DNA of 13,215 nt from Bacteroidia bacterium (GTDB lineage Bacteria > Bacteroidota > Bacteroidia > NS11-12g > UBA9320). Location of the stretch: positions 1 through 13,215 of the forward strand of contig JAKMFK010000172.1 in NCBI GenBank assembly GCA_022425465.1, written 5' to 3'. How positions within the stretch are numbered: position 1 is the first letter of the stretch; each line of letters opens with the position of its first letter. The notes under the pieces were generated by a model, which was given only the letters and a program-made list of their open reading frames with translations, made no database searches and was not told where the DNA came from. Positions 2,005-11,461 of the stretch are shown piece by piece. The translations under genes and the position numbers were made by a program.

Positions 2005-3282
2005 ATGGGAAAAAAATTAAATTTTATTGTTTTAACAATTTTGGTTTTGATTTGCACTTTTGTAGCAAACAATTATGAAGAGTTGTCATCTGCAATCGAT
2101 TCAGGTGATACAGCTTGGATGTTGGTAGCTAGTGCTTTTGTTCTGCTCATGACACCTGGACTGTCATTCTTTTATGGTGGGATGATTAACAAAAAAAATG
2201 TAATCTCTACCATGTTGCAGAGTTTTATTGCCTTAGGGGTAATTAGTGTTTTATGGGTGGTAGTCGGTTTTAGCCTAGCTTTCGGAGAAAGTATTGGTGG
2301 AATTATTGGAAATCCATCTACCTATTTTGCGTTTAAGAATGTAGGGTCAAATCCTAATCCTGCATTTTCATCAACAATTCCTTTTTTGCTTTTTGCACTT
2401 TTTCAACTCAAATTTGCCGTAATAACGCCAGCTTTAATTACGGGTAGTTTTGCTGGTCGTGTGAGGTTCAGGAGCTATATTTTCTTTATGGTCCTCTTTA
2501 GTATTTTTATATATAGTCCATTAGCTCATATGACTTGGCACCCAGACGGTTTATTCAGAAATTGGGGTGTATTGGATTTTGCAGGGGGAACAGTTGTTCA
2601 TATGTCAGCTGGTTTTGCGGCATTAGCGGGTGCTGTTTTTCTGGGTAAAAGAAAGACGCTTACAGAAGACTCCATTAATGTTCCTTATGTTATTTTAGGA
2701 ACAGGTTTGTTGTGGTTTGGATGGTTTGGTTTCAATGCAGGATCAGCTTTAGGAGCTAATGCAGATGCAGTAATTGCTTTTGCAAATACAAATATCGCTT
2801 CAGCTACAGCAATGATAACTTGGGTTTTTTATGAGCGAATGCTTGGACGTAAAATGTCTGCATTGGGAGCATGTATTGGAGCAGTAGTTGGATTGGTAGC
2901 TATTACTCCAGCGGCAGGTTTTGTAAATATTGGTCAATCGATGTTCATAGGATTTATTGCATCCATTATTTCCAACTGGGCAATTAATTTTAAGAATAAA
3001 ACGGGTATCGATGATACGCTCGATGTTTTTCCAAGTCACGGTGTTGGCGGTATAGTTGGTATGCTACTTACTGCGGTTTTTGCTTCAGAAGTTGGGCTGA
3101 TTTATGGTGAAACAACCACGTGGTATAATCACTTGATAGCTTTAGTGATTACTTCTGTATATTGTTTTGGAGGTAGTTATCTGCTTTACTTTATTGTCGA
3201 TAAATTATTGAGTATGCGAGTCAGAGAAGATCAAGAGGATAGAGGGTTGGATCAGAGCCAACATGGCGAAAAAATTGATTAA
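2005..3282 (+). CDS. amt: Ammonium transporter, Amt/MEP/Rh family
   Basis: Inner-membrane trimeric channel that takes up ammonium. The 425-residue protein has an N-terminal hydrophobic segment (about 5-21), a periplasmic stretch, then eleven membrane helices. Amt signatures are clear: DTAWMLVASAFVLLMTPG (35-52), Asp191 followed by FAGGTVVHMSAG carrying the first pore histidine (His199), NAGSALGANA (244-253), and PSHGVGGIVG carrying the second pore histidine (His345). The cytoplasmic tail (about 403-425) keeps the conserved basic-acidic pattern ending in HGE that contacts the GlnK regulator in E. coli AmtB. No PII gene (glnB/glnK) is adjacent, unlike the usual glnK-amtB pair, so regulation by PII would have to act in trans. 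ATG 2005 gives the expected length; no Shine-Dalgarno is visible, as is common in this phylum. It is monocistronic, ending in a terminator. Confidence 0.96.
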   Translation: MGKKLNFIVLTILVLICTFVANNYEELSSAIDSGDTAWMLVASAFVLLMTPGLSFFYGGMINKKNVISTMLQSFIALGVISVLWVVVGFSLAFGESIGGIIGNPSTYFAFKNVGSNPNPAFSSTIPFLLFALFQLKFAVITPALITGSFAGRVRFRSYIFFMVLFSIFIYSPLAHMTWHPDGLFRNWGVLDFAGGTVVHMSAGFAALAGAVFLGKRKTLTEDSINVPYVILGTGLLWFGWFGFNAGSALGANADAVIAFANTNIASATAMITWVFYERMLGRKMSALGACIGAVVGLVAITPAAGFVNIGQSMFIGFIASIISNWAINFKNKTGIDDTLDVFPSHGVGGIVGMLLTAVFASEVGLIYGETTTWYNHLIALVITSVYCFGGSYLLYFIVDKLLSMRVREDQEDRGLDQSQHGEKID

Positions 3283-3283
3283 A

Positions 3284-3311
3284 AAAAAGCCCATATACAT
3301 GTGGGCTTTTT
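3284..3311. terminator. Bidirectional terminator between amt and the convergent membrane protein gene
   Basis: AAAAAGCCCA (3284-3293) pairs with TGGGCTTTTT (3302-3311) around an 8-base loop. The A run on one side and T run on the other let it act for both strands. It starts two bases after the amt stop and lies 19 bases past the end of the opposing gene. Confidence 0.85.
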
Positions 3312-3330
3312 CAATTGAATAAATTCTATT

Positions 3331-3738
3331 TTAGACTGTTCCTTTCTTAGATCCATATAATAAAAGACCATAAGAAACTAGTCCCATAATAATTACTGGT
3401 AAAGGAGCTGCCAAACCATCATTTGTAATGAATGAGATTAAATCTGGTAAAGCACAAAATCCCCAAATAACACTATACAAGAATGAAAGTCTTCTTAAAG
3501 TAGCTTCGTCATTAAACGATCTAGATCCAATAAGTAAGAAGATTAATCCTGTAAAAATTAGACCGACTACCATAGCAAAGTTTTCAAATAACTTTACGGC
3601 ATCTGCAGAGGGTGTATCTCCAAAAACATCGGCAAGTAACATAGCTTTGAAATCAGCGTTGAATAAGCTGAGAGGTAGTGGTAAAAGTTGTAAAAATGCG
3701 AGTACCGCTACAATTGTAAAAATAGTTTTAATTTTCAT
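3331..3738 (-). CDS. Small four-helix membrane protein of unknown function
   Basis: The 135-residue product has four predicted membrane segments: about residues 5-26, 54-70, 83-104 and 113-129. A polar stretch (about 27-50) follows the first helix and a short Ser/Arg/Asp-rich loop follows the second. No cysteine pairs, histidine clusters or catalytic motifs are seen, and I cannot name the family. The ATG at 3738 is followed directly by a Lys-rich start and a hydrophobic helix, so the start is credible. The gene is separated from the photolyase operon behind it by 87 bases that hold a promoter-like element, so it is probably transcribed on its own. The open frame on the opposite strand has a hydrophilic, low-complexity translation and is a shadow. 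Confidence 0.75.
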   Translation of the reverse strand: MKIKTIFTIVAVLAFLQLLPLPLSLFNADFKAMLLADVFGDTPSADAVKLFENFAMVVGLIFTGLIFLLIGSRSFNDEATLRRLSFLYSVIWGFCALPDLISFITNDGLAAPLPVIIMGLVSYGLLLYGSKKGTV

Positions 3739-3755
3739 TTTAGTTTATGAATTAA

Positions 3756-3777
3756 TTGGTTTAAGAAACCAAATATA
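3756..3777 (-). promoter_or_regulatory. Possible -7 promoter element overlapped by a perfect dyad
   Basis: On the minus strand 3777-3770 reads TATATTTG (fits TAnnTTTG), about 32 bases before the ATG at 3738. A perfect inverted repeat, TTGGTTT-AAG-AAACCAA (3756-3772), overlaps the end of this element and the likely start point. Such a placement would suit a repressor operator, or a hairpin at the very 5' end of the mRNA. No upstream TTTG was found at the right spacing. Confidence 0.4.
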
Positions 3778-3796
3778 AATAAAACTTGGCATTTGT

Positions 3797-3826
3797 AGTT
3801 GTGAGCTGATGCTAGGTGGCACAACT
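3797..3826 (-). repeat. Inverted repeat at the end of the photolyase operon
   Basis: AGTTGTG and CACAACT form a perfect 7-bp inverted repeat around a 16-base loop, beginning at the stop codon of the last photolyase-operon gene. It could protect or define the 3' end of the mRNA, but there is no U-tract, so it is not called a terminator. Confidence 0.3.
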
Positions 3827-5286
3827 TATTCTAATGAAGACAAAAATTCTTCAGCTATTTTTAGCTGTTCATCCATTTTGGGACCTTCCATTTTTCGAGC
3901 TAGATTTACCATCATACTCATTCGTCTATTTTTAGAAAATTCTTCATGATTAACATAGATGAATCGCCAATAAAGGGCATTCCATGTTCTACACCATTCT
4001 CCCTTTTTGTAATCACTCATTTTTAAAATATAGTTGCTACCACTACAATAGGGTTTGGTTGTCATCAGACCTCCATCTGCATATTGAGTCATACCATATA
4101 CATTAGGTACCATTACCCAATCGTAGGCATCTACATACATCTCCATGAACCATCGATAGACTTCGTCTGGGTCAAATTCACAAAGCATCATGAAGTTTCC
4201 CATGATCATTAATCGTTCTATGTGATGGGAATACCCTGTTTTTAGTAGTTTTTGGATGGTTTTGTCTATTGGTACTATTCCGGTGCTGCCTGTCCAAAAA
4301 CTTTTTGGGATTTTTCGAGAATAACCAAAGTGATTTGTAGTTCGTTGTTTTACTCCATCCAGTGTGTAGATTCCTCTTATGAATTCTCGCCAGCCCAAGA
4401 TTTGACGAATAAAACCTTCTAAACTATTCAATGGGAAATGCTGAACTGAATGAGACTTGAGAACTTCATTGATAATTTGTTTTGGACAAAGTAGACCTAT
4501 ATTTAACATAGGTGTGAGTATAGAATGCCATAACCAATGTTCTTCTTTAACAATGGCATCTTCATAGTCTCCAAATAAGACAAATCGTTCTTGAATAAAT
4601 TGGTCTAGATGTTCTTCGGCTTTTTGATGGGTTATTGGGTAATAAAATGAATTTATATCACCATAATTGCATTTGAAATTATTCTCTACATAGCCTTTAG
4701 CCTCAGCAATATACTTATTCTCTGTTGGGTGTTTATATTTTGGAATTGGAGTTCCTTTTGGAACTTTTTTACGATTATCAGCATCAAAGCTCCATTTTCC
4801 TCCTACAGGTTTATTGTCATCCTCTAACAAGATTTTATGTCTTTTCCTAGATTCACTATAAAAGCTTGCCATTAGGTATTTTTTTTGAACTTTCAGTAAA
4901 TCACCAACTTCTTTTTGGGTATTTATAAAATTGGGGTTTTCATGTTGAATGGATTCAACATTATATTTTTTAATAAACCTATTGATTCTTCCTTCGAGTA
5001 AGTAATCATCAGAAACAAAGTAATGAATTTGATTTTTTTGATTTTTTTCTAGAATTGATTCTAGACTAAATTTATCTGTCGATTGAATATATATTACGGA
5101 GGTTTTATCTGATATGTAATCAGCATAGTATTTCATGCTAGCTCTGTGTAGAACTAACTTTTGTTTGTGGAATTTGTATTGGTTAAAATATAAATCGTCT
5201 TCTATCAGATATATCTTTTCACACTCTTCAACTAATGTGGAGTTTTTATATAATTGATGCGGAAATACAAGTCCTATTTTTTTCAT
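3826..5286 (-). CDS. FeS-BCP/CryPro-type photolyase lacking two Fe-S ligand cysteines
   Basis: Predicted FAD photolyase of the bacterial (6-4)/CryPro group, which in Agrobacterium PhrB repairs (6-4) photoproducts with FAD, a ribityllumazine antenna and a [4Fe-4S] cluster. The 486-residue length is typical. Family marks are the N-terminal antenna domain beginning KKIGLVFPHQL, GGKWSFD (162-168), LEGFIRQILGWREFIRG (289-305), the paired active-site histidines His354-His355 in HHIERLMIMGNF, and PNVYGMTQYADGG (394-406). Cys369 and Cys432 match two of the four cluster ligands (Cys350 and Cys454 of PhrB). The segment that normally carries the CxxC pair between MSDY and the last cysteine is missing: here MSDY (423-426) runs straight into KKGEWCRTWNALYW. 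A four-Cys cluster therefore cannot form in the standard way, although Cys414 (KPYC) lies nearby. The start codon overlaps the preceding stop (ATGA), and an AAGGA sequence lies upstream. It is the last gene of the operon. Confidence 0.92.
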   Translation of the reverse strand: MKKIGLVFPHQLYKNSTLVEECEKIYLIEDDLYFNQYKFHKQKLVLHRASMKYYADYISDKTSVIYIQSTDKFSLESILEKNQKNQIHYFVSDDYLLEGRINRFIKKYNVESIQHENPNFINTQKEVGDLLKVQKKYLMASFYSESRKRHKILLEDDNKPVGGKWSFDADNRKKVPKGTPIPKYKHPTENKYIAEAKGYVENNFKCNYGDINSFYYPITHQKAEEHLDQFIQERFVLFGDYEDAIVKEEHWLWHSILTPMLNIGLLCPKQIINEVLKSHSVQHFPLNSLEGFIRQILGWREFIRGIYTLDGVKQRTTNHFGYSRKIPKSFWTGSTGIVPIDKTIQKLLKTGYSHHIERLMIMGNFMMLCEFDPDEVYRWFMEMYVDAYDWVMVPNVYGMTQYADGGLMTTKPYCSGSNYILKMSDYKKGEWCRTWNALYWRFIYVNHEEFSKNRRMSMMVNLARKMEGPKMDEQLKIAEEFLSSLE

Positions 5287-5843
5287 ATGATAATAATTCC
5301 TTCGTTAATATCTCCCATTTCTAAATGTTTATTGTTTTGATGTCTTAATCCAGATAGGAGTGCCATAAGAGCGTCAATTTGATGCCAATTGGTGGGGGTG
5401 TCGTTTAAATGAATAGGTGTTTTTTCTAGTAATTTTAAAAGAAATAAATCGATGTCTTTTTTGTAATGAGTACTCTTGATTAGCTTAGATTGAAAGAAGG
5501 CCGGATAGACTTCATAAAAAGCAACAGTTTTGAATGAATTTTTTAAACTCATCGCTCGAGCGGTTAATCCACCCAGAAACATTGGAGACATGGCACTTGT
5601 TTCAATATCTGCTTTACGATAGTGAAAATTTTGACCTTGGCCATGGTATGCACTTGGGATGCTCAAGGGTGCATCAATATAGACTGATTCAGGGTTAATT
5701 TCTTCTAACATTGATTTTAGCCATGAATCGGTGTGTTGTTTTTTGGCTACTTGAATAAATTGAACTTGATCATTGCTCAGATGAGCAATTACACTATTCC
5801 CGCTCAATTGAGCCCCAAAGTCTATACCTATTATTTTAGCCAT
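5283..5843 (-). CDS. DUF429-like predicted nuclease (RNase H fold) inside the photolyase operon
   Basis: The 186-residue protein resembles DUF429/COG4923-type predicted nucleases with a ribonuclease H-like fold. What is seen: an N-terminal strand and turn [12 protein letters not shown] with Asp8, a second strand VYIDAPLSIP with Asp57, a charged YRKADIE stretch (75-81), EVYPAF with Glu111, and a C-terminal helix HQIDALMALLSG with Asp157. Three aspartates in this order fit the metal-binding pattern of RNase H-fold enzymes, but activity is unproven. The gene starts 13 nt before the cryptochrome-DASH stop and ends in a 4-nt overlap with the next photolyase, so it is probably translationally coupled to both. 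The context suggests a role in DNA repair or in handling damaged nucleic acid; that is inference. The assignment rests on motif reading by eye. Confidence 0.8.
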   Translation of the reverse strand: MAKIIGIDFGAQLSGNSVIAHLSNDQVQFIQVAKKQHTDSWLKSMLEEINPESVYIDAPLSIPSAYHGQGQNFHYRKADIETSAMSPMFLGGLTARAMSLKNSFKTVAFYEVYPAFFQSKLIKSTHYKKDIDLFLLKLLEKTPIHLNDTPTNWHQIDALMALLSGLRHQNNKHLEMGDINEGIIII

Positions 5844-7048
5844 TTTTCTCTGTAACTCTTAGTTGGGTCATAACGATCTGCTTGACCTTGAGTGTTAAAC
5901 TTACGAAATGGCCGGGGGTCATTACCAACACCAGCAATGTACATCCAGTTGCCCCAATTACTTGCAGGGTCGTAGTCAATCAATTGACTTTCCATCCATG
6001 CTGCACCCCATCGCCAGTTAATATTTAAATCGTGAACTAGAAAACTTGCTACATTTTGTCTGCCTCTATTACTCATCCATCCTGTAGCTTTGAGTTCAAT
6101 CATATTGGCATCAACCAAATCATCTCCAGTGTTACCATTTGCCCAATTCCAGAATGTATTCTCATGATTTCTGTATGAAATCGTTTTTCCATTTATACCA
6201 TTTTTTTTAAAAAAAAGGGAGCCATGCTTGCGAAGCTGAAATTGAAAAAAATCCCGCCAGAGCAATTCAAAAATCAACCAATAGGTTGACGAATTAGCCC
6301 CTAATTTATTCTCGTAATCCTTAACTAAATAATGGATTGTTCGAGCAGAAATATTTCCATTTGAAAGCCATGGACTAAACCTACTACTAAAGTCTGTTCC
6401 AAGCATTCCATTTCTTGTTTCTTTGTATGTTGATAAGAGTTTTTTCTCGAAGAAATAATAGTTCAAACGATGAATGGCCTGTTGCTCCCCTCCAGCTAGT
6501 TTGTAAGGCACATTAAAAGTAGGTATGTTAGGAAGATTTATTGGCTTTTGAAATGAACCATACTTTTCTATTTTTTTTCTAAATGAACTGAAAACATCAG
6601 GTGTTTTGTTTAATTCAAAAGGTAGCGTCATAGTATTGATTAAAGTAAAATTATCAAGTGCTATGTTTTTGTTAGTTTTAGATAAAACCTGATGTTCTAT
6701 CTCTAATTCTTCGGTTCCAAATAACTTCTGGTAAGTTAAAATTTCATCGTCACTTATTTCAAGTTCTTTAAGTTCATCAATGGCTTGAAAGATGGTTAAT
6801 TCTATGCCTAATTTTTCGAGGTCTTTTTTTAATTCCTGTAGGGATTCGTTTATAAACTGTTTTCTTTTATCGCCAATTAGTGGAAAACCAAGCTGATGGT
6901 TTTCACCATACTTGGCATTCGTAATATAAAAGCAACGAATGGATTTTAAGGTATGGTGAACTGATATAACCTCATGGTCAGATACACGTTGGTCATTTCT
7001 AAACCAATGAATTATTTTTTTATTTTTTATTTCTTCGACAACGTTCAC
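5831..7048 (-). CDS. Cryptochrome DASH
   Basis: FAD-containing cryptochrome of the DASH subgroup, whose members repair cyclobutane dimers in single-stranded or looped DNA and may act in light responses. It has 405 residues, somewhat short for the family: the chain ends a few residues after the FAD domain, at REKWLK. Domains are a photolyase N-terminal alpha/beta domain (about 10-165; [13 protein letters not shown], 14-26) and a helical FAD domain (about 190-400). DASH hallmarks are [22 protein letters not shown] (207-228, phosphate and FAD binding), [15 protein letters not shown] (254-268), [20 protein letters not shown] (313-332), and [16 protein letters not shown] (364-379), which keeps the Asn364 and Trp368 equivalents of the flavin-site Asn and proximal electron-transfer Trp. 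The start is GTG at 7048: a stop lies four codons upstream and no ATG precedes the conserved motif. It starts 29 nt inside the zinc-ribbon gene. Confidence 0.95.
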
Positions 7049-7154
7049 TACAATATTTTACGTTTTCCCAGTTTCTTTCCCATTTTTTTCGCCAATTAAA
7101 GGGTAGACCACAAGTCAAGCATTCCTTTGAAGGAAGGTTCTTTTTTTTATGCAT
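7020..7154 (-). CDS. DUF2256-type four-cysteine zinc-ribbon mini-protein (44 aa)
   Basis: This small gene is easily missed by length cut-offs. Read on the minus strand from ATG 7154 to TAA 7022-7020 it encodes 44 residues. After a Lys-rich N-terminus comes CLTCG (Cys12, Cys15), then a Trp-rich basic middle ([12 protein letters not shown], 18-29), then [10 protein letters not shown] (Cys35, Cys39). The CxxC...CxxxC spacing and the WRKKW...VKYCSxxCR signature match what I know of DUF2256, a family of about 50-residue proteins. It probably binds one zinc; the strong positive charge would suit nucleic acid binding. It begins 21 bases after the SDR stop and overlaps the cryptochrome-DASH start by 29 nt in another frame, so it lies within the same operon. 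Its function is unknown; context suggests a photolyase accessory factor. Confidence 0.93.
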
Positions 7155-7175
7155 TTATATTGTGGTTAGCAGAAT

Positions 7176-7847
7176 TTATCCGTTGGATAAACTACTCATT
7201 CCTCCATCTATTCCTATAATTTGCCCACTAATCCATTGAGCTTTATCACTCAATAAAAATTGAGTCATGTGTGCAATGTCACTTGCCTCTCCAATAGATT
7301 TAAGTGGATGCCTTTGTTCAGCTCCTTCTCTTTGTTTTTCGTTTCTTAAAAGCTTTTCAGCCAATGGAGTATTTGTAAGACTTGGAGCAATACAGTTTAC
7401 TCTAATTTTAGGGGCTAATTCTGCTGCCAATGCTCTTGTTAGACCTTCTACAGCACCTTTTGCGCCAGCAATACTGCTATGAAAGTGCATTCCTTTTTGG
7501 ACTGCTACAGTGCTAAAAAGAGTAATGCTGGCATTTGAAGATTCTTTGAGGTTGGGTAAAAAGTTCTTGATTGTTTTTACTGCACCTAAATAATTAATAT
7601 TTAAATCGTGTTGAAAATCAGCTATTTTCAATCCTCTAAAAGGTTTTAAATTGATGCTCCCTGGACAATATACCAAAGCATCAACGGGACCTTCAATTTC
7701 CGGGAAATTTGGTTCATCGTCTTGGATATCTACTCCACCTTGACTCCTACTCATGAGAATGGTTTCGTTACCCTCAGCAAGTAATAACTCATTTAGTTTT
7801 TCGCCAATTCCAGTATTTCCTCCAACTATAAGTATGCGTTTGCTCAT
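7176..7847 (-). CDS. SDR-fold protein lacking the catalytic tyrosine
   Basis: First gene of the photolyase operon. The 223 residues show a classical short-chain dehydrogenase/reductase Rossmann fold: nucleotide-binding GGNTGIG (9-15), Arg34 after the second strand (suggesting NADP), Asn85 in the NxxG-like NYLG position, Ser112 at the catalytic serine strand, Lys130, and a C-terminal RVNCIAPSLTNTP and SGQIIGIDGG. The active-site YxxxK motif is altered: the position four residues before Lys130 is Ile126 (SSIAGAKGA), encoded by ATT, and the neighbouring residues are His121, His123 and Ser125 rather than Tyr. Standard carbonyl/alcohol dehydrogenase chemistry is therefore unlikely; a redox-sensing, binding or altered reaction is possible. 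SDR genes near photolyase/cryptochrome genes are, to my recollection, recurrent in Bacteroidota and marine Proteobacteria. The start at 7847 is secure from the N-terminal motif. Confidence 0.9.
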   Translation of the reverse strand: MSKRILIVGGNTGIGEKLNELLLAEGNETILMSRSQGGVDIQDDEPNFPEIEGPVDALVYCPGSINLKPFRGLKIADFQHDLNINYLGAVKTIKNFLPNLKESSNASITLFSTVAVQKGMHFHSSIAGAKGAVEGLTRALAAELAPKIRVNCIAPSLTNTPLAEKLLRNEKQREGAEQRHPLKSIGEASDIAHMTQFLLSDKAQWISGQIIGIDGGMSSLSNG

Positions 7848-7920
7848 AGTTTTAATAACACGTTTTTAGTAATTTAGTTTAGGTGAACATTGTATTGGGT
7901 ATTGTGTTTTAATTTTACTT
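7848..7920. promoter_or_regulatory. Divergent control region between the two photolyase transcription units
   Basis: These 73 bases must hold promoters for both the leftward five-gene operon and the rightward class I-like photolyase. The sequence GTATTG occurs twice in direct orientation (7892-7897 and 7899-7904), flanked by ATTGT at 7889-7893 and 7901-7905. This could be a tandem operator or part of a promoter. No recognised light-regulator operator can be named. No -7 match is visible for the leftward promoter. Confidence 0.45.
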
Positions 7921-7923
7921 TTG
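7895..7923 (+). promoter_or_regulatory. Possible Bacteroidota promoter overlapping the photolyase start
   Basis: TTG at 7895-7897, then 18 bases, then TACTTTTG at 7916-7923 fits the Bacteroidota -33/-7 pattern better than any other site in the window. It conflicts with translation: the predicted transcription start falls at or after the TTG codon at 7921, which is the only plausible start codon. Either the start would have to lie on a longer transcript from further upstream, or the match is chance. Confidence 0.35.
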
Positions 7924-9375
7924 GTAAGGCAAGAAGTAAATATTGTTTGGTTTAAGAGGGATCTACGACTAAAGGACCATCTACCCTTATCGTCCTCAAT
8001 AGATCAAGATTTGCCAATTATATTACTATATATTTTAGATTCCGAATATGTTAATAATCCTCATTATTCAGATCGGCATTGGCAGTTTGTCAAAGACAGT
8101 TTAAAAAATATGTCAAGACAGCTCAAATTATATGACCACAAGTTGTCAGTTTTGGAGGGTGATACGGTCGAGGTATTCAAAAATATTCACACTAAGTTTT
8201 CTATTAAAAACATCTATTCTCATCAAGAGACGGGATTAGTATTTTCATATTCTATCGATAAAAAATTAAAAAATTGGGTTGGTAGTGAGAAAATTTCATG
8301 GTCCGAATTTCAACAAAATGGAATTATCAGGGGGCTTAAAAACAGGGATGATTGGGTTAAAAAATGGTATGCATACATGCATAGTTCTGAAATAGTCGTT
8401 GATTTGAGCTTATCAAAAACGATCTTGTTCAAGTCAAAAAAATTTGAACCTACTTATTTTATGAACTTGGGCAATGATAGTCATATTCAGTCTGGCGGTG
8501 AGGATTTAGCAATAGATATACTAAATGATTTTATATCGAATAGGAGCAAGCAATATTCCTATCATATTTCAAAACCAAATGAAAGCAGGACTTCTTGCAG
8601 TCGATTGTCCGCTCACATAGCTTGGGGCAACATGAGTATACGGCAAGTATATCAGGCTGCATACCACGCAAAAAAGAATGGAAACAAAAGAAATTTAAGT
8701 GCCTTTCTATCCAGGCTTAGATGGCACTGTCATTTTATTCAGAAGTTTGAACAAGAAGTAGAAATGGAGTTTCTTCCTCAAAATAAGGGGTATATATCTT
8801 TAAGGAGGGAATCAAATCCAGCTTATATAAAAAGTTGGGAAGATGGAAATACAGGGATCCCTCTTGTTGATGCTTGTATGCGATGTGTCAAAAAAACGGG
8901 TTATTTAAATTTTCGGATGCGTGCCATGTTGGTATCTTTTTTGACTCATGCCTTGTTGCAAAATTGGGATGACGGTATTCAATATCTTGCAAAACAATTT
9001 ACTGATTTTGAGCCAGGAATTCACTACCCTCAGTTTCAGATGCAGGCCTCTGTTACGGGAATCAATACAATTCGAATATATAATCCAATTAAACAAGCTA
9101 AAGATCATGACCCAAAAGGTATTTTTATAAAGAAATGGGTGCCAGAATTGAGTGATTTCCCAACAGAATATATTTATGAACCATGGAAAATGAATGAAAT
9201 GGAACGCAGTTTATTTGGGCTTAAAACGTCGTATCCTCAGCCCATAATTGATTTATCAGAGGCACTGAAAAAAGCTCGAAAAGTCTTGTGGTCCGAAAAG
9301 GGGTCAAAAGACGTTAAAAATGGGAAACAATCAGTTTTGAGTATGCACGCTGTTCCTGGGAGAAAAGAGCAGTAA
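7921..9375 (+). CDS. Class I-like photolyase/cryptochrome, TTG start
   Basis: Predicted FAD photolyase (484 residues). The N-terminal domain opens with VNIVWFKRDLRLKDHLPL (6-23). The helical FAD domain has TSCSRLSAHIAWGNMS (224-239), FLSRLRWHCHFIQKFE (262-277), WEDGNTGIPLVDACMR (306-321), the GYLNFRMRAMLVSFL helix (327-341) and RIYNPIKQAKDHDPKGIFIKKW (385-406), all in class I order. By eye alignment with E. coli PhrB through the shared NP motif, the proximal triad Trp382 falls on Phe372 and flavin-site Asn378 on His368, within HYPQFQMQAS. This points to a distinct subgroup, either photolyase or sensory cryptochrome. The start must precede residue 6; the frame upstream has no ATG or GTG back to the stop at 7870, so TTG 7921 is used. 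It converges on the prc gene with only 4 bases between stops, leaving no room for a terminator. Confidence 0.9.
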   Translation: MVRQEVNIVWFKRDLRLKDHLPLSSSIDQDLPIILLYILDSEYVNNPHYSDRHWQFVKDSLKNMSRQLKLYDHKLSVLEGDTVEVFKNIHTKFSIKNIYSHQETGLVFSYSIDKKLKNWVGSEKISWSEFQQNGIIRGLKNRDDWVKKWYAYMHSSEIVVDLSLSKTILFKSKKFEPTYFMNLGNDSHIQSGGEDLAIDILNDFISNRSKQYSYHISKPNESRTSCSRLSAHIAWGNMSIRQVYQAAYHAKKNGNKRNLSAFLSRLRWHCHFIQKFEQEVEMEFLPQNKGYISLRRESNPAYIKSWEDGNTGIPLVDACMRCVKKTGYLNFRMRAMLVSFLTHALLQNWDDGIQYLAKQFTDFEPGIHYPQFQMQASVTGINTIRIYNPIKQAKDHDPKGIFIKKWVPELSDFPTEYIYEPWKMNEMERSLFGLKTSYPQPIIDLSEALKKARKVLWSEKGSKDVKNGKQSVLSMHAVPGRKEQ

Positions 9376-9379
9376 ATGA

Positions 9380-11461
9380 TTAGTTCAAATCCTCAATTAT
9401 CTGAAGAGCTTCATAAATATATGGATTTTTACTGACGCTATTAACCCAGTCTGAATTTCTTTTTTTTCGAGATTCTTCTGCTTCAATTACCTCAATGTCA
9501 ACTCCTGGGTTTGATACGTTGAAATTTTCAATTTTCTCTTTGCCAATTTTCTCAAATTTTTCACCTTCCTCTTTCTCTTTAATTTTAGCATTTGAATAAG
9601 CTGAGAAGTTAAGAGCATAGGTCGAATTTTCTCGTTGTTTTTCCCAACGTTTCGCATTCTCTTCAATGAGATTGAAGGTAGCATTTTTGTTAATTCTTGA
9701 CTGACTTTTTTTGATAATTTTATCTGAAATGGAATGGCTGTTTTTTTCAAAGCTAGAACCCTTTATTTGATCCCAAGGAAGAGGATAATCGTGCTCTTGT
9801 TCACCCGTTTCCAAATACATATAGTTGTCCGGAATGATTACATCTGATTGAACTCCTTTTAGTTGGGTAGCATCACCATTGATTCGATAGAATTTTTGAA
9901 TGGTTAGTTTAATACTCCCAATATCGGGTATATTTTTATTTCGAAGGGTTCGGTTTAGTGGCAAGAATCGTTGAACAGTTCCTTTACCATGCGTGGAACG
10001 GGAGCCGATAATAATAGCTCGATCGTAATCCTGCATTGCTGCAGCCATAATTTCAGATGCCGAAGCACTGAACTCATTAACCATAATGACCAATGCACCT
10101 TCCCATTCAGCACCTGGGTAACGATCTTCAAGAATATGTGCTGACCTGCCTTTTTCTTTCACTTGAACAATAGGACCTTTATCAATGAACAATCCACCCA
10201 TTTTAACTACATCATCCAGCGAACCTCCACCATTATTTCTTAAATCAAGAATGATTCCTTGAACCTGTTCGTCTCGAAGTTTTTCTATCTCCGTTTTAAC
10301 ATCTTTCCAACTAAATCTCCCTTTTGGATTTTGAAAATCAGCATAAAAGCTAGGAAGGTAAATGTAGCCTGCTTTAATTCCATCTTCATCACTTAATAAA
10401 AGTGATTTGGCATAGGTTTCCTCTAAAACAACAATGTCTCGAGTTATGGTAATATCTTGTTCATTACCATCTGGTTTACGAACGGTGAGTGTAACTTTTG
10501 ATCCTTTTGGTCCGCGAATAATTTTGACAGCGTCACTTATTCTCCAATCAATAATTTCTACAGGTTCTTCTCCTTCCTGAGTAACCTTAAGAATTAAGTC
10601 ATTGGCTTGTAATTCTCCTTGAAGCGAGGATGGTCCACCAGGAATAATGTTTGTAATTTTAATATAACCATCTTTTTCCTGAAGTTGAGCCCCTATACCC
10701 TCTAATCGTCCTGACATTTGGATGTCAAAGTCTTCTTTTTGCTCAGGTGGAAAGTAATTGGTGTGAGGATCATAAACTGTGGTTATGCTGTTTGCATAAA
10801 TGGCTAGTCGATCTTTTCTATCGAGTCTTTTTATTCTCTTATACCAATCCCTGTGTGTTTTTAAAACACTTTTTCTAGCGATTGCTTGCAGCGAATCCAT
10901 TGATTTTGGTATGAATGTGGTGTCCTTGTTTTCTAGTGATTTTTCTTGTGCTTTGTAATCGGAATATAAGCGAGTAAGTACACTATATTTAAGGTATTTT
11001 CTCCAACGATCTTTAAGTTCTTTTTCTGATTGGGTATATGGGATTTCTTCACCAAAGTCGACTATTTCGTCTTTGCTAAAATCCATTGGTTTATTCAAGA
11101 TTTCCTCAAAGAACCGTTCTGTTAATTCTGTTCTTTGCTCTAAGAGTTCAATCGATTTATCAAAGAAAACGGATGTTCCATTAATTATTTCATCGTCTAT
11201 TGTTGTTTTAAAATAGTTTAACTCATCGATGTCGGATTGGAGAAATAATCGTTTGTTCGCATCTAGATTATCAATGTATAATTGAAAGGCTTTTTCAGAA
11301 AAATCGTCATCAATTGAAATGGGGTCATAATGAGCATTTTGAAGGTTCATATTAATAGCTCTGAGCAAAATGTCTTCTCCAAGATCCTGATTTTTAGTGT
11401 AGAATCCAAAGGCTACAAAAACAAGTGGTCCAAGTAGAAAAAATGCGTTTCTGAATTTCAT
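9380..11461 (-). CDS. prc: Tail-specific (carboxy-terminal processing) protease, S41 family
   Basis: Periplasmic or membrane-associated endoprotease that degrades or trims proteins from the C-terminus. The 693-residue length matches the long Tsp/Prc type. Order: an N-terminal hydrophobic signal/anchor (about 6-20, no lipobox Cys), a helical N-terminal domain (about 30-235) with YDPHTNYFPPE (230-240), a PDZ domain (about 250-330, starting near LEGIGAQL), a core with GIILDLRNNGGGS (402-414), the catalytic serine in NEFSASASEIMAAAMQDYDR (462-481; probably Ser467) and catalytic Lys493 in HGKGTVQRFLPL. A charged C-terminal region (about 560-693) matches the tail of this subtype. The Ser-Lys dyad is intact. 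ATG 11461 sits directly before the signal segment. It is monocistronic and convergent with the photolyase gene. Confidence 0.96.
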   Translation of the reverse strand: MKFRNAFFLLGPLVFVAFGFYTKNQDLGEDILLRAINMNLQNAHYDPISIDDDFSEKAFQLYIDNLDANKRLFLQSDIDELNYFKTTIDDEIINGTSVFFDKSIELLEQRTELTERFFEEILNKPMDFSKDEIVDFGEEIPYTQSEKELKDRWRKYLKYSVLTRLYSDYKAQEKSLENKDTTFIPKSMDSLQAIARKSVLKTHRDWYKRIKRLDRKDRLAIYANSITTVYDPHTNYFPPEQKEDFDIQMSGRLEGIGAQLQEKDGYIKITNIIPGGPSSLQGELQANDLILKVTQEGEEPVEIIDWRISDAVKIIRGPKGSKVTLTVRKPDGNEQDITITRDIVVLEETYAKSLLLSDEDGIKAGYIYLPSFYADFQNPKGRFSWKDVKTEIEKLRDEQVQGIILDLRNNGGGSLDDVVKMGGLFIDKGPIVQVKEKGRSAHILEDRYPGAEWEGALVIMVNEFSASASEIMAAAMQDYDRAIIIGSRSTHGKGTVQRFLPLNRTLRNKNIPDIGSIKLTIQKFYRINGDATQLKGVQSDVIIPDNYMYLETGEQEHDYPLPWDQIKGSSFEKNSHSISDKIIKKSQSRINKNATFNLIEENAKRWEKQRENSTYALNFSAYSNAKIKEKEEGEKFEKIGKEKIENFNVSNPGVDIEVIEAEESRKKRNSDWVNSVSKNPYIYEALQIIEDLN

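What the first reader, a model, noticed from the sequence alone, without database searches (positions are those of the whole stretch)
3826..9375. Compact photolyase/cryptochrome island with three paralogues and three accessory genes
Seen: a five-gene minus-strand unit (SDR, DUF2256-type zinc ribbon, cryptochrome-DASH, DUF429-like nuclease, FeS-BCP-like photolyase), with 29, 13 and 4 nt overlaps among the last four genes, divergent from a class I-like photolyase. Known: the three photoenzyme families differ in substrate, with single-stranded CPD, (6-4) and CPD or sensory roles among them. Inference: the accessory proteins act in light-dependent repair or signalling, for example damage recognition, zinc-dependent DNA contact, or flavin/redox handling. 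The retained compactness suggests the products are needed together.
Basis: partly seen in the sequence, partly recalled or inferred. Interest (0 to 1): 0.72.

Follow-up and report, generated by a model that had tools for sequence, protein, structure and literature searches.

The report
Photolyase island with DUF2256 partner
A compact bacterial gene island for light-driven DNA repair combines a (6-4) photolyase, a second photolyase-like enzyme and a tiny four-cysteine protein that, in the genomes sampled here, mostly appears only when that (6-4) photolyase does, which points to an unstudied helper of a well-known kind of repair enzyme.

Summary
The layout is real: a five-gene minus-strand unit (SDR, DUF2256, CRY-DASH, DUF429-like, prokaryotic (6-4) photolyase) divergent from a sixth gene, with overlaps of 29, 13 and 4 nt that are near-invariant in 14 same-genus loci. 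Two labels need correction. The 'FeS-BCP-like' enzyme has lost the four FeS-ligand cysteines but keeps the (6-4) repair residues; FeS-less relatives are already known. The 'class I-like photolyase' lacks the class I catalytic set and belongs to a distinct subfamily. The main finding is DUF2256, a 44-aa four-cysteine protein that tracks the (6-4) photolyase in three genome samples (both in 66/97, 58/198 and 41/143; mismatches 7, 12 and 8), often unlinked. Among phylum genomes with another photolyase-type gene it is in 50 of 52 with the (6-4) enzyme and 4 of 47 without. One natural (6-4) photolyase-DUF2256 fusion was found. In the phylum sample the divergent subfamily occurs in 27 genomes, all with the (6-4) enzyme; in an alphaproteobacterial sample, 15 of 17. 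The SDR is Tyr-less in photolyase loci of several phyla. DUF429 is dispensable. I read the island as a photorepair module in which DUF2256 is a dedicated partner of the (6-4) photolyase; binding and biochemistry are inferred.

The parts
3826..5286 (-). Prokaryotic (6-4) photolyase (DPRP, PF04244), FeS-less clade
   Evidence: PF04244 181.5 bits; best PDB 8ijy 286 bits; FeS ligands lost, H355, W331, D168, D243 kept; FeS-less side of the tree
5283..5843 (-). DUF429-like protein, RuvC/RNase H-like fold, optional member
   Evidence: homologues at 40-48% identity carry PF04250; AF2 pLDDT 96.5, best PDB RuvC 4ep4 E 9e-5; D8, D57, E111, D157 invariant in 64 homologues
5831..7048 (-). CRY-DASH, GTG start
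   Evidence: TIGR02765 412 bits, cut-off 317; PDB 6kii 315 bits
7020..7154 (-). DUF2256, 44 aa, four-Cys finger, WRKKW motif
   Evidence: PF10013 79 bits, cut-off 25; co-occurrence and fusion
7176..7847 (-). Tyr-less short-chain dehydrogenase/reductase (SDR)
   Evidence: PF13561 128 bits; catalytic Tyr position is Ile, His conserved at Lys-7
7921..9375 (+). Divergent photolyase-like flavoprotein subfamily (PHR-like), TTG start; lacks class I CPD catalytic set and Trp triad
   Evidence: PF03441 211 bits; residues; 27 of 27 phylum-sample genomes with a member are DPRP-positive
7848..7920 (.). 73-nt divergent intergenic region between the SDR and PHR-like genes
   Evidence: coordinates; promoter scan of 3200-9600 not above shuffles

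Best explanation
The island is a light-dependent DNA-repair module centred on an iron-sulfur-less prokaryotic (6-4) photolyase (DPRP). Conserved overlaps imply that its minus-strand genes are translated as a coupled unit (inferred from sequence). The DPRP most likely binds FAD and repairs (6-4) photoproducts with the His366-type and Tyr424-type residues it retains (inferred from residues that were tested in PhrB). DUF2256, a small treble-clef-like four-cysteine finger, is a dedicated partner of the DPRP. It probably docks on it, perhaps near the C-terminus as in the natural fusion, and helps fold it, load it or bring it to DNA (co-occurrence and fusion shown; binding inferred). CRY-DASH adds ssDNA CPD repair (known for the family). 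The divergent PHR-like flavoprotein is a DPRP-linked auxiliary rather than a CPD photolyase (genome association shown; role inferred). The Tyr-less SDR is a recurrent, non-classical NAD(P)-fold accessory. The RuvC-fold DUF429 protein is optional.
For: Overlaps conserved in the genus. DUF2256 versus DPRP: 66 both, 5 DUF2256 only, 2 DPRP only, 24 neither in 97 relatives; 58/5/7/128 in 198 genomes of the phylum; 41/2/6/94 in 143 genomes of an alphaproteobacterial class, where no CRY-DASH passes cut-off. Of 57 phylum pairs, 32 are unlinked, so a shared locus alone does not explain it. Among phylum genomes with another photolyase-type gene (DASH-model match at E 1e-40 or better, a cut that I chose), DUF2256 is in 50 of 52 with DPRP against 4 of 47 without. 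Of 80 DUF2256 loci from several phyla, 37 have DPRP in the fetched flank and 37 more have it elsewhere in the genome. Natural fusion P0118. DPRP retains H355 (PhrB H366), W331, D168 and D243, and Y413 in the KPY motif (PhrB Y424).
Against: DPRP without DUF2256: 2, 7 and 6 genomes in the three samples, and Haloferax among the controls; of 13 DPRP genomes without another strong photolyase match only 8 have DUF2256. DUF2256 without DPRP: 5, 5 and 2 genomes. Of the five relatives, two (G017, G065) are cut by contig ends, but G015, in the window's genus, has SDR-DUF2256 followed by other genes, with no DPRP found in the genome. Three of the phylum exceptions carry CRY-DASH, so DUF2256 may also serve DASH. 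One fusion protein among the 120 listed hits of each of two searches. p-values ignore phylogeny. No expression, binding or repair data. The DUF2256 model's PDB matches are not significant (E 0.43 or worse). FeS-ligand mutants of PhrB were insoluble or not expressed (PMC4619345, abstract seen), so ligand loss could also mean changed function.
Confidence: 0.55

Rival explanations
1. Shared-ecology reading: the genes sit together and co-occur because sunlit surface bacteria keep a light-stress kit, without DUF2256 or the PHR-like protein acting directly on the (6-4) photolyase.
For: The genes are often unlinked (32 of 57 pairs); CRY-DASH is also strongly associated (40 of 41 genomes with DPRP and DASH carry DUF2256); DUF2256 is weaker where DPRP is the only strong photolyase match (8 of 13).
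Against: Photolyase-bearing phylum genomes without DPRP rarely have DUF2256 (4 of 47); the match holds where no CRY-DASH passes cut-off; in one genus (g28) six sampled genomes have both genes and three have neither; fusion P0118.
Confidence: 0.2
2. Signalling reading: the DPRP and the PHR-like flavoprotein act as blue-light sensors, as CryB of Rhodobacter does, with DUF2256 as output partner or regulator that contacts nucleic acid or another protein.
For: CryB, a relative of the DPRP (3zxs), affects global gene expression (PMC3320616, abstract start in the listing and passages); the PHR-like subfamily lacks CPD catalytic residues and the Trp triad; YacG, first by rank in the fold search, is listed there as a gyrase inhibitor (not significant).
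Against: The DPRP here keeps repair-essential His and Tyr and the Mg-site Asp residues; no separate output domain was matched in the unit by Pfam.
Confidence: 0.15
3. Cofactor-supply reading: the Tyr-less SDR and DUF2256 help make or load a flavin or antenna chromophore for several photolyase-family proteins of the island.
For: DUF2256 associates with DPRP and also with DASH; the SDR recurs in photolyase loci in several phyla with the Tyr lost (9 of 9); antenna cofactors of the FeS-less subgroup M are called diverse and in need of study (PMC9178010, passage).
Against: No cofactor-enzyme family was matched specifically (the SDR scores below the NCBIfam cut-off in each of the 25 best of 198 matches shown); only 9 of 80 DUF2256 loci have this SDR nearby, so it is not obligatory.
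Confidence: 0.1

Closest known systems
Prokaryotic (6-4) photolyases (FeS-BCP: PhrB, CryB; FeS-less subgroup M with PromaPL)
   Same: DPRP N-domain, FAD domain, (6-4)-type His, Mg-site Asp residues
   Different: No FeS ligands (as reported for subgroup M); encoded in an overlapping unit with DUF2256, DASH and SDR
CRY-DASH
   Same: TIGR02765 above cut-off, Q and Y at the two lesion-contact positions
   Different: Start codon lies inside the DUF2256 gene with a conserved 29-nt overlap
Class I CPD photolyase (E. coli, 1dnp)
   Same: Fold and FAD-domain family of the divergent gene
   Different: E274R, N341F, M345A/S, N378H, W384M, Trp triad broken; a separate subfamily
PhrSph98 bifunctional photolyases
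   Same: Non-canonical bacterial photolyase; one is known in a two-photolyase operon (PMC9649867)
   Different: PhrSph98 homologues are reported to keep E310, N384, M388 and N412 (passages); the PHR-like subfamily has lost what I take to be the corresponding class I residues
YacG / FCS-type fingers (Pfam TRASH clan)
   Same: CxxC...CSxxC pattern; DUF2256 listed in the same clan as zf-FCS relatives (PMC4047054, passage); top-ranked but non-significant fold matches
   Different: WRKKW core of DUF2256; genome association with DPRP
DUF429 / RuvC-like nucleases
   Same: Fold and four conserved acidic residues
   Different: The window protein itself has no Pfam DUF429 hit

Membership tests
Prokaryotic (6-4) photolyase (DPRP) | PF04244 domain plus FAD-binding domain | tested here: met
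   181.5 and 28.1 bits, both over cut-off
Prokaryotic (6-4) photolyase (DPRP) | Repair-essential His (PhrB H366) and Tyr (PhrB Y424) | tested here: met
   H355 and Y413, 44 of 44 rows each; His mapped via 9hnk H365, one number off PhrB; Tyr mapped by the KPY motif in the Y424F primer; roles from PMC4619345 passages
Prokaryotic (6-4) photolyase (DPRP) | Mg-coordinating Asp pair | tested here: met
   D168 and D243 align to D178/D253 (roles predicted in PMC12082625, passage), 44 of 44 rows
FeS-BCP subtype | Four FeS-ligand cysteines | tested here: not met
   P339, K427, gap, R433; 47 of 80 aligned DPRP rows lack the set, one of those (L146) because its contig ends
FeS-less subgroup M | Grouping with PromaPL in a tree | not tested
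   PromaPL was not in my alignment
Prokaryotic (6-4) photolyase (DPRP) | (6-4) repair activity | not testable with these tools
   needs biochemistry
CRY-DASH | TIGR02765 score over cut-off | tested here: met
   412 against 317 bits
CRY-DASH | Gln/Tyr at the two lesion-contact positions | tested here: met
   GRQN and NW-Y motifs aligned to 6kii/1np7 by eye; table in PMC7560933
Class I CPD photolyase | E274, N341, M345, N378, Trp triad | tested here: not met
   R, F, A, H and a broken triad in the window; R, F and H in 31 of 31 rows and in 17 of 17 alphaproteobacterial members; residue roles recalled
DUF2256 | PF10013 match and four Cys | tested here: met
   79 bits; C12, C15, C35, C39 invariant in 37 sequences
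DUF2256 | Zinc binding | not testable with these tools
   inferred from cysteines and clan
Classical SDR | Glycine-rich NAD(P) motif | tested here: met
   GGNTGIG (motif recalled)
Classical SDR | Ser-Tyr-Lys catalytic set | tested here: not met
   Thr, Ile and Lys in the window by my count against the recalled FabG motif; Ile or Val in place of Tyr in 23 of 23 rows (window and 22 relatives) and in 9 of 9 loci of the 80
DUF429 | PF04250 over cut-off | tested here: inconclusive
   none for the window; 17-18 bits against 23 in two relatives; many homologues at 40-48% identity carry it

The most novel reading that the evidence does not exclude
Bacterial (6-4) photolyases normally work with a dedicated DUF2256 zinc-finger subunit that purified-enzyme studies have missed, and in many lineages with a second, catalytically re-tooled flavoprotein (His facing flavin N5, no Trp triad) that exists mostly alongside the (6-4) photolyase; together they form a multi-protein photorepair system rather than a single-enzyme one.
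Probability: 0.35. Interest if true: 0.82.

Novelty: new variant of a known kind. Interest (0 to 1): 0.6.

Why it matters
Prokaryotic (6-4) photolyases are, as far as the papers I saw go, studied as stand-alone enzymes. A 44-aa protein present in 66 of 68, 58 of 65 and 41 of 47 sampled genomes that have one, and in 4 of 47 phylum genomes that have only other photolyases, would change how these enzymes are reconstituted and give a widespread family of unknown function (DUF2256) a first testable role. The FeS-less clade and the PHR-like subfamily offer natural tests of what the FeS cluster and the canonical residues are for.

Tried and rejected
DUF2256 as a substitute for the lost FeS cluster: rejected, because DUF2256 also neighbours DPRPs that keep all four cysteines. 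DUF2256 belonging to CRY-DASH alone: rejected as sole partner, because the alphaproteobacterial sample has no DASH over cut-off (0 of 143) yet keeps the match. DUF2256 with some other constant neighbour where DPRP is unlinked: I scanned 20 neighbour proteins from 18 of the 43 such loci; the only recurrent one was an M17 peptidase in three loci of related sphingomonad-type bacteria. DUF429 as defence gene: only a weak PADLOC hit (21 bits), dropped. Promoter and terminator scan: counts not above shuffles, no use made. Rfam: only a tRNA. A literature search on accessory zinc fingers matched its terms too loosely to inform. Contig ends as the explanation of all DUF2256-only relatives: tested for G015 and rejected. 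Rows dropped or kept: in the phylum count of DUF2256, G150 (below cut-off) was dropped and the partial match G221 kept; G000 was left out of the 57 linkage pairs; for the PHR-like count, 27 matches of 426 bits or more were kept and the other 23 listed rows, 261 bits or less, set aside as other photolyases. The DPRP tree warns that a long-branch row, L116, may be misplaced. At least four of the 80 cross-phylum loci (L106, L120, L147, L153) are contigs also met among the relatives, by equal contig length or sequence.
Full report
What is there. The window is the whole of one contig of a draft genome (1.78 Mb, 309 contigs, 88% complete). On the minus strand lie SDR 7847-7176, DUF2256 7154-7020, CRY-DASH 7048-5831 (GTG start), a DUF429-like gene 5843-5283 and a DPRP photolyase 5286-3826. 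A photolyase-like gene, 7921-9375, is divergent on the plus strand (TTG start). The stated overlaps of 29, 13 and 4 nt are exact. I measured the same junctions by script in the 14 loci of the window's genus that hold both DUF2256 and DASH. DUF2256->DASH overlaps by 29 nt with a GTG start in 13 of 14 (50 nt in one). DASH overlaps the next gene by 13 nt in 14 of 14, whether that gene is the DUF429-like one (10) or, where it is missing, the DPRP itself (4). DUF429-like->DPRP is 4 nt in 8 of 8 measurable loci. Such constancy suggests selection on translational coupling, and that DUF429 was gained or lost without disturbing it. The divergent gene is missing in four genus loci, L040-L043. In a further genus genome, G015, SDR-DUF2256 is present but DASH and DPRP do not follow it.

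The (6-4) photolyase. The DPRP protein matches PF04244, and its nearest solved relatives are of the prokaryotic (6-4) photolyase kind (8ijy 286 bits, 9hnk 270 bits, PhrB entries 268-270 bits). The Caulobacter enzyme's FeS ligands are C349, C437, C440 and C453 (PMC12082625, passages). 9hnk has cysteines at exactly these numbers, from which I take it to be that enzyme; against it the window reads P339, K427, a gap and R433. The Mg-site residues D178/D253 are D168/D243, and the His that I map to PhrB H366 is H355. In PhrB, H366 and Y424 are essential for repair, Trp342 and Trp390 carry electrons, and Cys mutants were insoluble or not expressed (PMC4619345, abstract and passages). The window keeps W331 and W379 at the two Trp positions, although the first is Tyr in 17 of 44 family rows. 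In 80 DPRP rows from my loci (79 different), 33 keep all four cysteines and 47 do not; one of the 47 is only cut by its contig end. The tree has one deep split between the two kinds, and the window is on the FeS-less side. FeS-less members are already known as subgroup M with PromaPL (PMC9178010, passages). I did not place PromaPL in my tree, so membership in subgroup M as such is inferred.

DUF2256. This is a 44-aa protein with four cysteines and the core WRKKW; 37 sequences from several phyla share C12, C15, W21, R22, K24, W25, W29, V32, C35, S36 and C39. It is a known Pfam domain of unknown function. In the held library two papers name it: one lists it among frequent small proteins (PMC11796252, passages), the other puts it in the TRASH clan with DUF329 (PMC4047054, passage). 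That YacG belongs to DUF329 is recalled. Its AlphaFold model (mean pLDDT 82) ranks YacG and an FCS finger first in the PDB, but at E 0.43 or worse, so this is only suggestive.

Co-occurrence. Relatives, 97 genomes, the window's own included: both 66, DUF2256 only 5, DPRP only 2, neither 24. Of the five, G017 and G065 are cut by contig ends at the expected DPRP place; G015 is a real exception at its locus; G027 and G060 were not resolved. Phylum sample, 198 genomes drawn evenly, 197 of them at least 90% complete: 58, 5, 7, 128. Alphaproteobacterial class sample, centred on a Rhizobium genome, 143 genomes: 41, 2, 6, 94. Fisher p-values are 1e-15, 6e-36 and 7e-27 but ignore shared ancestry. Within one genus (g28) of the phylum sample, six genomes have both and three have neither. 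Of 57 phylum pairs, 25 lie within 6 kb and 32 do not, so the association is not just hitch-hiking on one locus. Control for a light-exposed lifestyle: among 99 phylum genomes with a DASH-model match at E 1e-40 or better (class I/III or DASH type; my cut), DUF2256 is in 50 of 52 with DPRP and 4 of 47 without; in the 13 DPRP genomes without such a match it is in 8. CRY-DASH is also associated: DUF2256 is in 40 of 41 genomes with DPRP and DASH, 18 of 24 with DPRP alone, 3 of 5 with DASH alone, and 2 of 128 with neither. In the alphaproteobacterial sample no genome has DASH over cut-off (0 of 143), so I take DPRP as the main partner, with DASH a possible second. Among the 14 control genomes, DUF2256 occurs in Caulobacter and Synechococcus, DPRP in these and in Haloferax.

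Neighbourhoods in other phyla. 37 have DPRP in the fetched flank, 20 of them at 100 bp or less, and 43 have some photolyase-family gene. Of the 43 loci without a local DPRP, 37 genomes have one elsewhere. The six that do not are five MAGs, one of them of the window's genus and cut at a contig end (L120), and Runella zeae. Twenty neighbour proteins that I scanned in 18 of those 43 loci gave no recurrent partner apart from one peptidase in three related loci.

Fusion. Among the 120 listed relatives of the window DPRP, one protein, P0118 (540 aa, one 18.2-kb contig), carries an FeS-less DPRP followed by DUF2256. A second search with P0118 as query listed no other fusion among its best 120. Both listings are capped, so rarity is uncertain.

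The divergent gene. Mapped on E. coli photolyase, E274, R278, N341, N378 and W384 become R, H, F, H and M in 31 of 31 rows (window and 30 relatives); M345 is A or S, W306 is variable and W382 is F or L. The residue roles in E. coli are recalled. Of 20 alphaproteobacterial places that I picked from the hits, 17 gave full-length members; R, F and H hold in 17 of 17 and M in 16 of 17. In a published table the two lesion-contact positions read M/W (CPD), H/W (6-4), Q/Y (DASH), V/Y (plant cry) (PMC7560933, passage); here they are A or S/M. In the phylum sample there is a clean gap between 27 matches of 426 bits or more and the other 23 listed rows at 261 or less. All 27 genomes are DPRP-positive (65 of 198 overall) and 26 carry DUF2256. 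Of the 17 alphaproteobacterial members, 15 sit in DPRP-positive genomes (not G432, G472). I call it PHR-like. It may correspond to a group already drawn in someone's tree, such as the 'DASH-like' group in PMC9178010 (figure legend); I could not check that. It does not fit the PhrSph98 group, whose homologues are reported to keep E310, N384, M388 and N412 (PMC9649867, passages and section 17).

Accessory genes. The SDR keeps the glycine motif and the Lys, but the catalytic Tyr position is Ile or Val in all 23 rows of window and relatives and in 9 of 9 members found in the 80 loci (score 141 or more, one of them from the window's genus). The seven lower-scoring SDRs of the 80 loci that could be read at this site have Tyr. 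A His seven residues before the Lys is present in those 23 and 9. The DUF429-like protein has a RuvC-like fold (4ep4, E 9e-5, the only PDB match at E 0.001 or better) and four invariant acids D8, D57, E111, D157 in the 64 homologues that I aligned of 120 listed. Two of the 80 loci have it: the window's genus and Runella zeae, where it lies directly upstream of DUF2256.

Reading. The evidence fits a photorepair module with DUF2256 as dedicated partner of the (6-4) photolyase. Shown: gene content, conserved overlaps, residue changes, co-occurrence, one fusion. Inferred: coupled translation, physical binding, repair activity, and the roles of the PHR-like protein and the SDR. That I found no role for DUF2256 in print rests in a library of openly licensed papers only; the listings on photolyases showed none by title or abstract start. 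One 2022 paper states that only two earlier reports described photolyases in operons (PMC9649867, passage).

Noticed in passing
G000:C131:7553-8131: The same genome holds a further photolyase-family gene outside the window (161 bits to the DASH model, 447-aa frame), perhaps an ordinary CPD photolyase.
   Followed up: no
L054 (G015, window's genus): SDR and DUF2256 stand together without DASH, DPRP or DUF429 downstream; two other genes (291- and 494-aa frames) follow.
   Followed up: partly
L139:5376-6123 (Runella zeae): DUF429-like gene directly upstream of DUF2256 in a genome without detectable DPRP; it has two other photolyase-family genes.
   Followed up: partly
L036, L074, L075, L082, L088, L099: Relatives with PHR-like - DUF2256 - FeS-type DPRP - DASH, all on one strand: a similar parts list built round the other DPRP clade.
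   Followed up: partly
G357:C1:818569-819212: Small alphaproteobacterial genome whose DPRP reads in two pieces with stops inside one, while DUF2256 is still present.
   Followed up: no
L145:4976-5980: A flavin amine oxidase lies directly upstream of an unlinked DUF2256 in a Rhodospirillales MAG, reminiscent (recalled) of light-induced lipid or carotenoid clusters.
   Followed up: no
window 3331-3738: 135-aa hypothetical protein without Pfam or NCBIfam match at E 0.001, 97% identical in G003 in the same place next to the ammonium transporter.
   Followed up: no
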